DNA of 36,408 bases, from NCBI GenBank assembly GCA_031272765.1, contig JAISTD010000224.1, forward strand, positions 1-36,408, written 5' to 3'. Shown here one piece after another: positions 31,730 to 36,408 of the stretch (its first letter is position 1; each line of letters begins with the position of its first letter). The position numbers and the translations under genes were made by a program. Under the pieces are notes generated by a model. The model did no database searches, had not been told where the DNA came from, and saw only the letters and a list, made by a program, of their open reading frames with translations. This DNA is from Candidatus Methanovirga australis (GTDB lineage: Archaea > Methanobacteriota > Methanobacteria > Methanobacteriales > Methanobacteriaceae).

Positions 31730-32701
31730 TCAGTATTTTAGGCTTTTAAGTTTTGAAATTGGGAGATTGGTGACTTCACTGACTAAGTCTAATTCCATTC
31801 CTTTTCTTAAAAGATTGATGGCTATTTCCAACTTACCATCATTCATTCCTTTTTGCTCTCCTTTTATTATTCCTTCTTTCATCCCTTCTATTTTACCTTC
31901 TTTTATTCCTTCTATTTTTCCTTTTTTTATTCCTTTTAATTCTCCTTGTTTTCTGCTGTGGTTTATTTCACTTTCAAATTCCATTTTTGCTAATTGTCTC
32001 ATTTGATAGTCGTGAAAAGCTTTTTCATCTGAGAGTAGTTCATTGAATTTTTCATCTGCTGCTTTTATGTCTTTATCCATCTTAATCACCTCATCTATAA
32101 GTTTTTTTGGGCTTTTTTTATCAAAGAATATCATCCATCTATGTAACGGGTTATTCAAGTCTTTTTGTTTTAGTTTTCTGAATGCTGGAATGTTTATATT
32201 GTATATTGTCAGATAGTCTGAGTATAGACATTGATCTTTATTTCCAAGTATATTAAACTTTTGGTTAGTGAGATTATTCTGACAAAATTTAAAATCCAAG
32301 ATATTGATTAATGTATGTGGTTTTAAATCATTTAATTCACCTTTTTTCACTGAATTGGAATATTCCCTCGCTAAATACAGTAAACTTCTTTTTTTGAAGT
32401 GGTGCTGATTTTGTCTTTGCACTTCTATTATGAAGTGTCTTCCATCTGATGAAACTGATCTTAAATCAAGTATGCAATTTTTTTTGCCTTTAATTTCGGC
32501 TGAAATTAGTTTATTTTCAATAATCTCTATAAATTCAATTGAGTCATTGTTTTCTTTAAGCACTGCATTGATGAACGATTTTAGTTGTCTTTCCATGCCC
32601 TCACTTGCCATATACTGAGAAAACAAAAAGTCATCCAACGGATCAAAATACCTTGTAGTAATAATAATATTACCTCCATAAAAAAATTTCTTAATCAACA
32701 A
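31730..32701 (-). CDS. Rpn family recombination-promoting nuclease / putative PD-(D/E)XK transposase
   Basis: TTRYFDPLDDFLFSQYMASEGMERQLKSFINAVL…ILDLRSVSSDGRHFIIEVQRQNQHHFKKRSLLYLAREYS…; C-terminal GxxxGKIEGIKEG repeats. Confidence 0.85.
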   Translation of the reverse strand: MLIKKFFYGGNIIITTRYFDPLDDFLFSQYMASEGMERQLKSFINAVLKENNDSIEFIEIIENKLISAEIKGKKNCILDLRSVSSDGRHFIIEVQRQNQHHFKKRSLLYLAREYSNSVKKGELNDLKPHTLINILDFKFCQNNLTNQKFNILGNKDQCLYSDYLTIYNINIPAFRKLKQKDLNNPLHRWMIFFDKKSPKKLIDEVIKMDKDIKAADEKFNELLSDEKAFHDYQMRQLAKMEFESEINHSRKQGELKGIKKGKIEGIKEGKIEGMKEGIIKGEQKGMNDGKLEIAINLLRKGMELDLVSEVTNLPISKLKSLKY

Positions 32702-33033
32702 GTATCATTTAGTAATATTTTATTTTGTATTGATTCATATATTAATAATACTTTTAACTAAATTAATATTTATAAGTGATGTTAATTTTTAGGAGTATGT
32801 ATTGATATTTTCAAGTTAATAATTAAATATAAATTAGAATATTATTTTACTGAAATTTTACAATTATGATCAATTTTTTTAAGAATTAAGACTGTTTTTT
32901 TTATTTGGTGGGCTTTTTCTATTATATTGAAATATTCGATATGTTTATATGGTATGAAAATATAATATTCTATGTTCTAATTAAATGGAATTATAAGTAT
33001 AAAAAAAATAATGATGATGGAGTGTATAAATGT

Positions 33034-33948
33034 ATGTATAAGAAGAGTAGAAAGATGGTATTAATGATGTTAGGCATTGCATTGTTTATGGTTTGTGGTT
33101 TGACTGTGGCTCATGTTTTCACAAGTTCCCAAAATATCAATACAGGTCAAACTAGTGGTGGTTGGGGGGGTGATGTTTATGGTAGTTATGATGGATACAC
33201 TCACCAATTAACTTTAACCCCACAAATCACTCCTGGACCAAGTGGTAGTATGCCAGCAGCTAATTTAATGTATTGGTTTGAGATTTTCAATAATGGTACT
33301 CCATTACCTATGAGCACTTATCTTGGGTCTACTCCAGCTATTGTGGATGGTACTGTTCCAAGTTTCAGCACGAATTTACTGGGTTTTGGAGATATTCCAA
33401 GTGGAAATATTAGTATTAATGTTGCTTTTGGTGGAACATCTTACACTTCAAGATTTAACTATTTTGATCAAACTATTTTTTTGAGCGTGACTGGTAATGA
33501 CAAGCCTGATTTGAATACAAGTATTCTTGGTGAAAATATAACTGTTAATAGTGGTGATTCTTTAGATTATAAGGTTAGATTGGTTGATAGTAATGGTAAT
33601 CCTGTAACTGGTGCTCCTGTTACTTTAACCGCAAATGGTGAGGATCATACTGTCACTACTGATGTTGATGGTTATGCATCCTATGAATTCACTAATATTA
33701 AAGAGGATATGACTGTTACCGCTGCTTTTAATGGTGTGGAAGGAGCTAATGTTTATTATCTTTCTTCAACAGGTAGTTTTATGATTACTGTGAATCCTGC
33801 ACCTAACCCTGATAATAATGGTACAGGTGGTAATGGTGGTGGTGATTGGTTTGATAGTTTCTGTGATGGTTTGCCTTGGACTGGTATTCCTTTATTGGTT
33901 TTAGTGTTTGCTATTGTTGGTGGAGTTTATTACTACAAGAAAAAATAA
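33034..33948 (+). CDS. Secreted surface protein with Ig-like (Big_1-type) domain and C-terminal membrane anchor
   Basis: Signal MYKKSRKMVLMMLGIALFMVCGLTVAHV; DYKVRLVDSNGNPVTGAPVTLTANGEDHTVTTDVDGYASYEF; C-terminal TM + KKK. Confidence 0.75.
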   Translation: MYKKSRKMVLMMLGIALFMVCGLTVAHVFTSSQNINTGQTSGGWGGDVYGSYDGYTHQLTLTPQITPGPSGSMPAANLMYWFEIFNNGTPLPMSTYLGSTPAIVDGTVPSFSTNLLGFGDIPSGNISINVAFGGTSYTSRFNYFDQTIFLSVTGNDKPDLNTSILGENITVNSGDSLDYKVRLVDSNGNPVTGAPVTLTANGEDHTVTTDVDGYASYEFTNIKEDMTVTAAFNGVEGANVYYLSSTGSFMITVNPAPNPDNNGTGGNGGGDWFDSFCDGLPWTGIPLLVLVFAIVGGVYYYKKK

Positions 33949-34186: not shown

Positions 34187-34430
34187 TTCAGTGGAAATTC
34201 AATGTTTTTAAATTTGATTTAAAGATAAATTTAGCTTTTAAATCTAAAATTTTAATTTATAGCACTTGAAATAATTTTCTTAAGTTGTGGACTTTCTAAA
34301 TAAATATTGTTTTATTTTAAGTTTTTTGCTTAATTGAATAAAGATGTTTTTTAATATAATTAATTTTAATATTATTTAATAAGGAAATAAATTATATTTG
34401 AATGATGTTTTTAAACAGAGAATAAATTCT

Positions 34431-34663
34431 TCTAAAATAAATTTTTAACAATGAAGAATAAATCCTTCTGCTGATTTTATGGTGATGAACAGGAAAATAA
34501 GGAAATAGTTGTAACAATAAAGAATAGGTCCTTCTTCTGATTGAAAATAATTTTTTAATATAGTCATTTTGTAAGATTTTTATAAAATTATAAATCTTAA
34601 TACTTAATATATATTATTTAAATTTAATTTAAAGATATTATAAGATATAATTAATATTAATAG
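34431..34663 (+). repeat. ~233-bp direct repeat, copy A
   Basis: TCTAAAATAAATTTTTAACAATGAAGAATA…GATATAATTAATATTAATAG; near-identical to 36065-36298. Confidence 0.95.
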
Positions 34664-34687
34664 TTGATAAACATGACCATAATGACT

Positions 34688-35030
34688 ATAGAGGCTGTCC
34701 AACAATTATTTTTGTTCAACCTATATATAGTGAATTGCATACTTATTTCTGGATATTCAATTATTTTTAAATAAACTTTTGGAATTTAATGATATATAAT
34801 AGTATAAGAAAATTTAATGATTAATCTTAAAATATAAATTAAACATTAAAAATGACTTTATTTTATCAATTAATTTTAATAAAGATTGTTTATAAAAAAA
34901 TAATATAATTTTAATAATATTAAAATGAAATTTAACAATTTTAATCAATTTAAAATAATTTAAATAATTTTCAATAAAAATCAATAGATTAAACTTTTGT
35001 TGTGAGTCAGAATTGTTAGACAGAGCCTAT
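34688..35030. mobile_element. MITE-like element 1 (~343 bp)
   Basis: Termini ATAGAGGCTGTCCAACAATT (34688-34707) / AATTGTTAGACAGAGCCTAT (35011-35030) inverted 16/20; no ORF; left terminus resembles the IS1182-like end at 19687. Confidence 0.7.
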
Positions 35031-35148
35031 GATTTGTAATTAAAAAAGTTTAATATAAATGAGTATCAAACATAGTATAATAAAAAAGGAGAAATATAAC
35101 TCTACCAACTGTAAATATAAAAAAAATTTATATATGGGGCTGGTACTA

Positions 35149-35457
35149 ATGACAACAGTTGAAATAGAACCAAAATTATTAAAAAAAATCACTAAAATAG
35201 CTAAAAAAGAAAATAAAACAGAAAACAGTATTATAAACGATGTACTGAAAAAAGGATTGGAAAACAGGGAAAGTAAAGAAGTTGCTTTTGCAAGAATGGA
35301 ACGATTAACTAATGGAAAAATAAAAATACTTAATAAAGACACTTATAACCCTAATCCTACTGATGAGGAATTAAATTCAATAGTTGGAATAGTTAAAGCA
35401 CCAAAAGGAATAGATCCTGTTAAAGCATTGCTTGATTTAAGAATGGGAAAGGATTAA
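35149..35457 (+). CDS. VapB-like antitoxin
   Basis: MTTVEIEPKLLKKITKIAKKENKTENSIINDVLKKGLEN…; RHH-like N-terminus, 4 nt upstream of the PIN gene. Confidence 0.75.
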   Translation: MTTVEIEPKLLKKITKIAKKENKTENSIINDVLKKGLENRESKEVAFARMERLTNGKIKILNKDTYNPNPTDEELNSIVGIVKAPKGIDPVKALLDLRMGKD

Positions 35458-35461
35458 AACT

Positions 35462-35857
35462 ATGATATTTGTAGATGCGAGCTTTTTAGTAAGTTTAATC
35501 ACTAAAGAACCAGGATCTTATGATAGAGCTATCGAATTATGGGAGAAAAATAAGCATGAAGACAAGCTAATTACTCCTTCTGTTATTAGTGAAGTCATCA
35601 ACACTTTAAATGTTAGATTAAAAGTGGATATAGAATTAATTGATTATGCTTGTGAATTTATGCATGATAATTTAGTAATAACCGATGATTATGAATATCA
35701 TGTTGGTGCTGTAAAGAATATTAAATCGTTCCAGCCTTCAAGAGTACCTTTTTTTGATTGTTTATATATGAATGTAATGGAAGAGTTGGGAATAAAAGAA
35801 ATATTATGTTTTGATAAACATTTCGACTTAAACAAAAACATAAAAAGAATATACTAA
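35462..35857 (+). CDS. VapC-like PIN-domain toxin
   Basis: MIFVDASFLVSLI…ITPSVISEVINTLNVRL…FFDCLYMNVMEELGIKEILCFDKHFD. Confidence 0.88.
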   Translation: MIFVDASFLVSLITKEPGSYDRAIELWEKNKHEDKLITPSVISEVINTLNVRLKVDIELIDYACEFMHDNLVITDDYEYHVGAVKNIKSFQPSRVPFFDCLYMNVMEELGIKEILCFDKHFDLNKNIKRIY

Positions 35858-35960
35858 CATTATAATAATTATTTTTTCTAATTTTTTTTACATAATTTTA
35901 TTGAAAAGTCATCTGAAATACAAAATAAATTACTAACTTTAAAGATATTTTTTTATTCTT

Positions 35961-36065
35961 GAGGTTGCCCAACAATACAGGGTCATGAAAAATGATTTGC
36001 TCTATTTTCAATTTAAATACTTGTACGGTCTTACACCGCACGAAAATAATTGTTAGACAACCTCT
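35961..36065. mobile_element. MITE-like element 2 (~105 bp)
   Basis: GAGGTTGCCCAACAATA (35961-) / ATAATTGTTAGACAACCTC (36046-36064) inverted termini, same family as element 1. Confidence 0.75.
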
Positions 36066-36298
36066 CTAAAATAAATTTTTAACAATGAAGAATAGGTCCT
36101 TCTGCTGATTTTATGGTGATGAACAGGAAAATAAGGAAATAGTTGTAACAATGAAGAATAGGTCCTTCTTCTGATTGAAAATAATTTTTTAATATAGTCA
36201 TTTTGTAGGATTTTTATAAAATTATAAATCTTAATATTTAATATATATTATTTAAATTTAATTTAAAGATATTTTATAAGATATAATTAATATTATAG
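36065..36298 (+). repeat. ~234-bp direct repeat, copy B
   Basis: Near-identical to 34431-34663; begins at the outer end of MITE-like element 2. Confidence 0.95.
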
Positions 36299-36408
36299 TC
36301 TTTTTGGTATATTTTATAATTTTTAATTTATTGAAGTCCAATGTTCGTAAATCCATTTTTCAGCACACTTTGTATATTTTAAAAAATTTTCAAATCCATT
36401 TACAACTT

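What the first reader, a model, noticed from the sequence alone, without database searches (positions are those of the whole stretch)
34431..36298. VapBC toxin-antitoxin island bracketed by MITEs and ~233-bp direct repeats
Order: direct repeat A (34431-34663), MITE-like 1 (34688-35030), vapBC (35149-35857), MITE-like 2 (35961-36065), direct repeat B (36065-36298). The outer MITE ends (GAGGCTGTCCAACAATTATTTTTGT at 34691 and, reverse-complemented, GAGGTTGTCTAACAATTATTTTCGT ending at 36064) form an inverted pair that could act as composite ends mobilising the TA cargo. Recombination between A and B could also excise a ~1.6-kb vapBC circle. A TA module with MITE ends would be a non-autonomous, self-stabilising 'addiction transposon' (inference).
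Basis: partly seen in the sequence, partly recalled or inferred. Interest (0 to 1): 0.8.

Follow-up and report, generated by a model that had tools for sequence, protein, structure and literature searches.

The report
Toxin-antitoxin genes between two miniature transposons
In a methanogenic archaeon whose closest relatives live in termite guts, a two-gene toxin-antitoxin unit sits between two tiny transposons without genes that together interrupt a third one, leaving a 260-bp repeat on each side; a second, unrelated toxin-antitoxin pair in the same genome sits between members of the same tiny transposon family with a clean 4-bp target duplication, so these elements may carry such genes as passengers.

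Summary
The layout is real, with corrections. The direct repeat is 260 bp (34431-34690): the 3' part of one TA-target MITE (R1) with a second one (R2) nested in it; 'MITE 1' is a ~143-bp element with a ~205-bp nested insertion missing in the sister species. Both MITEs belong to one family (TIR GAGGYTGTCYAACAAT, about 45 copies) that normally duplicates 4 bp. The two repeat copies abut the outermost TIR bases of MITE1 and MITE2, and the interrupted R1 continues on both outer sides (its right end is on another contig, across an IS). So MITE1-vapBC-MITE2 (1374 bp) interrupts one R1::R2 element, with a 260-bp duplication instead of 4 bp. The sister species (Candidatus Methanovirga procula) has the same unit (vapBC 99.3% identical; core about 95%) at the same right-hand locus, but its left flank changes exactly at the MITE1 end. 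A second MITE pair here brackets a HEPN/nucleotidyltransferase TA pair with a perfect outer 4-bp duplication (AGAT). The composite-ends idea is partly supported; excision, transposition and 'addiction' remain inference. Transposons built from miniature elements are known; the long duplication is unusual and its cause undetermined.

The parts
34257..34430 (+). 5' part (X) of an R1 MITE (TAGTCCTTGA-type TIR, TA target), contiguous with the left direct repeat
   Evidence: R1 alignment; R1 family 210-293 bp with TA/TA flanks in 12 of 14 copies
34431..34690 (+). left copy of the 260-bp direct repeat (R1 3' part plus nested R2)
34561..34688 (+). R2 MITE (TAGTCATTTTG...CATAATGACTA) nested in R1, flanked by TA
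   Evidence: sharp 3' end in dispersed copies; TA flanks
34691..35027 (+). MITE1, ~145-bp class of the GAGGYTGTCYAACAAT family, enlarged by a nested repeat
34728..34933 (+). approximate nested dispersed-repeat insertion inside MITE1, absent in G004
   Evidence: alignment break; repeat copies
35149..35457 (+). vapB-like antitoxin gene (102 aa from the ATG at 35149)
   Evidence: vapBC 99.3% identical in G004
35462..35857 (+). vapC toxin gene, PIN domain (131 aa)
35961..36064 (+). MITE2, ~105-bp class of the same family
36065..36295 (+). right copy of the 260-bp direct repeat, interrupted; its last ~30 bp lie at the end of contig C133
36296..36408 (-). end of an IS inserted at TA in the right repeat's R2 (transposase C-terminus ...KWIYEHWTSIN*, minus strand); it breaks the contig
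   Evidence: both contig ends and their translations

Best explanation
The island 34691-36064 is a MITE-bounded composite element: two members of one 4-bp-duplicating MITE family enclose a vapBC toxin-antitoxin operon, and the unit inserted by its outer ends into a single R1 element that already carried a nested R2. The insertion duplicated 260 bp of target rather than 4 bp. Movement would need a transposase acting in trans; none was found. Shown: the family, its copy number and 4-bp duplications, exact abutment of the repeats on the outer TIRs, R1 halves on both sides, and a second TA pair bracketed by the family with a perfect outer duplication. Inferred: that the outer ends worked together, that the unit can still move or be popped out by A/B recombination, and any addiction effect.
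For: Repeats abut the MITE ends to the base and continue outward into R1 5' (left) and R1 3' (right) (R1 3' end against the right flank scores 63, shuffles at most 41). No R1 remnant lies between the MITEs and vapBC, against two separately interrupted R1 copies. The family duplicates 4 bp. Second case: C113:32187-33334, HEPN E 1.7e-19 and nucleotidyltransferase E 7.6e-12, outer flanks AGAT/AGAT, own flanks of the intact MITE TATT/AGAT. vapBC at more than 90% identity is found only in this genome and G004 among 141 family genomes, so it is a recent acquisition or a recently exchanged segment.
Against: The outer 4 bp differ (TATA/TCTA), no better than either MITE alone (3 of 4 each). A 260-bp duplication is atypical of this family. 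G004 keeps only one repeat copy and its left flank differs. The parent transposase was not found: the IS4-type elements seen have other ends. The right repeat is joined across a contig gap. Two MITE pairs within 1.5 kb is about what random placement gives (my estimate, about 1.2 expected for 45 elements in 2.44 Mb), and only two TA cases exist.
Confidence: 0.5

Rival explanations
1. Recombination between MITE copies built the island: MITEs inserted separately (TATA at the R2 end, TCTA 260 bp upstream) in different chromosome copies, and unequal crossing-over or integration of a MITE-bearing cassette joined them around vapBC, duplicating the 260 bp. The MITEs are landing pads, not transposon ends.
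For: Gives a long direct repeat with exact MITE borders without an aberrant transposition; each outer flank would be half of an ordinary 4-bp duplication. At the HEPN locus the sister species keeps the same left MITE end but carries an Eco57I-type restriction-methylase gene instead, as expected of cargo exchange at a resident MITE.
Against: Needs two insertions plus recombination within short (about 100-145 bp) homologies; the perfect AGAT outer duplication of the HEPN island is explained equally well by composite transposition.
Confidence: 0.33
2. Chance accumulation: vapBC was resident near cofG in a repeat-rich region, and MITEs and R1/R2 copies landed around it independently.
For: The genome is crowded with these repeats; solitary MITEs near other genes, including a VapC paralogue at C127, are common.
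Against: Requires both MITEs to land within a few bases of both repeat borders; A and B share the same nested R2 and a middle stretch not seen elsewhere in this genome or in G004, so they are copies of one duplicated element.
Confidence: 0.12
3. The long duplication is a property of the parent IS, as for IS1549 and IS1634, which make variable direct repeats of 8-514 bp.
For: Published precedent with no mechanism proposed (PMC2266710).
Against: Solitary copies of this family show 4 bp, not long repeats; IS1634-family ends begin with C, not GAG; no such transposase was found.
Confidence: 0.05

Closest known systems
TIME-COMP elements (Tn3-derived miniature elements of Pseudomonas, 2014, PMC4133298)
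   Same: two miniature non-autonomous elements flank and mobilise cargo with no transposition genes of its own
   Different: Tn3 family, 5-bp duplications, transposition demonstrated; here another family, 4-bp duplications, a 260-bp repeat, no transposition shown
vapBC loci flanked by degenerate IS copies in Sulfolobus islandicus (PMC3718332)
   Same: archaeal vapBC with transposon remnants on the flanks, proposed to have moved vapBC
   Different: no defined composite ends or target duplications in the passages read; here the borders are defined to the base
IS1549 / IS1634 long direct repeats (reviewed in PMC2266710)
   Same: long direct repeats (8-514 bp) directly at the element ends
   Different: autonomous IS with a transposase; different terminal sequence; typical family duplication 5-6 bp
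Ordinary archaeal VapBC type II toxin-antitoxin system
   Same: small antitoxin gene followed 4 bp later by a PIN-domain gene
   Different: nothing unusual in the genes themselves

Membership tests
MITE (MITE1/MITE2 family) | short, no gene, terminal inverted repeats | tested here: met
   104-106-bp and 142-146-bp classes with GAGGYTGTCYAACAAT ends
MITE (MITE1/MITE2 family) | multi-copy with target duplication | tested here: met
   about 45 elements; perfect 4-bp duplications in 8 of 9 and about half in G000
MITE (MITE1/MITE2 family) | parent autonomous IS with matching ends | tested here: inconclusive
   PF01609 search and inspection of unpaired ends found none with these ends, but only one transposase family was searched and the genome is a draft
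Composite (TIME-COMP-like) transposon, vapBC island | cargo between two related elements with outer ends as borders | tested here: met
Composite (TIME-COMP-like) transposon, vapBC island | family-length target duplication at the outer ends | tested here: not met
   TATA/TCTA, with a 260-bp repeat instead
Composite (TIME-COMP-like) transposon, HEPN island C113 | family-length target duplication at the outer ends | tested here: met
   AGAT/AGAT
Composite transposon | demonstrated movement or empty site | not testable with these tools
   no empty site found in the 7 genus genomes held; no experiment
VapBC | PIN-domain toxin gene preceded by a small antitoxin gene | tested here: met
   PIN E 1.4e-8; upstream 102-aa ORF with only a weak RelB-like hit
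VapBC | toxicity neutralised by antitoxin | not testable with these tools
   needs an expression assay

The most novel reading that the evidence does not exclude
A 4-bp-duplicating MITE family in termite-gut methanogens repeatedly captures toxin-antitoxin and defence genes as composite, addiction-stabilised elements, and can insert with a 260-bp target duplication by a mechanism not yet described for MITEs.
Probability: 0.15. Interest if true: 0.72.

Novelty: new variant of a known kind. Interest (0 to 1): 0.45.

Why it matters
It gives base-precise borders for an archaeal TA module that appears to have entered as MITE-bounded cargo, and a second case in the same genome. If such composites move, they explain how TA genes spread without a transposase of their own and offer a setting in which to test whether TA cargo stabilises transposons. 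The 260-bp duplication bears on an unexplained observation in the IS literature (long direct repeats of IS1549 and IS1634).

Tried and rejected
Different location in the sister species: at first both flanks of the unit seemed to differ between the two genomes, but an IS in each (TA target in this genome, TGTA duplication in G004) hides that the right flank is the same cofG locus. R1 remnants inside the MITEs: none above shuffles. Parent IS: the IS4-type transposases at C64 and C162 do not have these ends (C64 has CTCTGTCAACTTAAGGA ends). MITEs near other VapC paralogues: only C127. Further composites in a 611-kb part of G004: none. Possible empty sites for solitary MITEs were only partial matches of 76-86% identity, probably other repeat copies, so not counted. 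Polarising the left rearrangement by gene order in other species failed because neighbours are not conserved. No solved structure matches VapC or VapB by sequence.

Full report
What is there. The window is contig C77 (complete, 36408 bp) of a draft genome of 2.44 Mb. A same-genus genome, G004, contains a contig (JAITGU010000108, 7915 bp) titled as a MAG of Candidatus Methanovirga procula; that genus is reported only from lower termites (PMC10684969).

Repeat families. Four families overlap here. The MITE1/MITE2 family ends in GAGGYTGTCYAACAAT, occurs in 104-106-bp and 142-146-bp classes and duplicates 4 bp (8 of 9 intact copies in the held part of G004). R1 (TAGTCCTTGA...TCAAGGACTA, 210-293 bp) and R2 (TAGTCATT...AATGACTA, 118-132 bp) are flanked by TA on both sides in 12 of 14 and 5 of 7 copies. 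A further AT-rich dispersed repeat is nested in MITE1 and is absent from the G004 copy.

The island interrupts one element. Left of MITE1 lies the R1 5' part, then 260 bp ending in R2 and its TA. Right of MITE2 lies the same 260 bp, starting at TCTAAAATAAAT directly after the TIR. In the window this copy stops at 36295, where an IS begins; the other end of what appears to be that IS, the remaining ~30 bp of R2 and then the R1 3' end are at the end of contig C133, with a TA duplication at the IS. G004 shows the same stretch (about 250 bp there, with a small deletion) uninterrupted and followed by the same R1 3' end. The match of the right flank to the R1 3' end is well above shuffles. Thus the order is X-DR-[MITE1-vapBC-MITE2]-DR-Y, where X-DR-Y is one R1::R2 element. 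Neither gap between a MITE and vapBC resembles the missing R1 halves. The A, B and G004 copies of DR differ from each other by similar small amounts, so the duplication is about as old as the split of the two copies of this locus (inference).

Comparison with the sister species. MITE1 (without its nested insertion), vapBC, MITE2 and the repeat are 98.4% identical in G004; vapBC 99.3% and cofG 96.6%, against 94.7% for 7.1 kb of core genes (709-bp windows at most 98.3%). The right flank is the cofG 3' side in both species: in G004 an IS with GAGAATTTCT ends and a TGTA duplication separates it into two contigs. The left flank in G004 changes at the first base of MITE1 to the region after a chorismate lyase gene, which in this genome lies elsewhere. 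A deletion or rearrangement adjacent to the MITE end is the simplest reading (inference). No other species held for the genus, nor any of 141 family genomes, has a vapBC this close.

A second case. At C113:32187-33334 a HEPN gene and a nucleotidyltransferase gene, a known archaeal TA combination (PMC3718332), lie between a truncated and an intact member of the same MITE family. The outer flanks are AGAT and AGAT; the intact MITE alone has TATT and AGAT. A chance 4-bp match at this base composition is about 1% (my estimate). G004 has the same left end but different cargo, an Eco57I-type restriction-methylase gene, with its right end off the contig. This fits composite transposition, or exchange of cargo at a resident MITE.

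Mechanism. I favour insertion by the outer ends (0.5), with recombination between MITE copies as the main rival (0.33). The 260-bp repeat is unusual: solitary copies give 4 bp. IS1549 and IS1634 give 8-514 bp with no mechanism proposed (PMC2266710). Transposons formed by two miniature elements are demonstrated in Pseudomonas (PMC4133298), and IS remnants beside vapBC were noted in Sulfolobus islandicus (PMC3718332). Recombination between A and B would restore R1 and release a vapBC circle carrying both MITEs and one repeat (1634 bp start to start in the window). That is possible in this genome and not in G004, which has one repeat; it was not observed.

Limits. The genomes compared are fragmented drafts; the right repeat is joined across a contig gap; the parent transposase was not found; no experiment bears on toxin activity, mobility or addiction. 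With about 45 elements in 2.44 Mb, roughly one pair within 1.5 kb is expected by chance, so the case rests on the exact borders and the duplications, not on proximity.

Noticed in passing
L286 3188-4335 (G000 C113:32187-33334): HEPN/nucleotidyltransferase TA pair between two members of the same MITE family with a perfect outer 4-bp duplication AGAT; in G004 the same left end precedes an Eco57I-type restriction-methylase gene.
   Followed up: yes
window 36296-36408 and end of L196 (G000 C133): An IS with TAGTC ends and a TA duplication sits in the right repeat and breaks the assembly; C77 and C133 can be joined across it.
   Followed up: partly
L157 1-117 and end of L233 (G004 C66, C88): A high-copy IS with GAGAATTTCT ends and a 4-bp duplication (TGTA) separates the island from cofG in G004; several G004 contigs end in it.
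   Followed up: partly
L197 (G004 C74) and L157: G004 has a second, 5'-truncated copy of the chorismate lyase gene beside an MFS transporter, while the copy next to vapBC is followed by a remnant of that transporter: a duplication with deletion.
   Followed up: no
window 31730-32701: PD-(D/E)XK family (PDDEXK_2) gene left of the island, and an Ig-like adhesin gene at 32905-33948; the PDDEXK_2 region has many relatives in G004.
   Followed up: no
L283 1175-1908 (G000 C127): A solitary MITE of this family (duplication AAAA) lies about 200 bp from another PIN-domain gene.
   Followed up: partly
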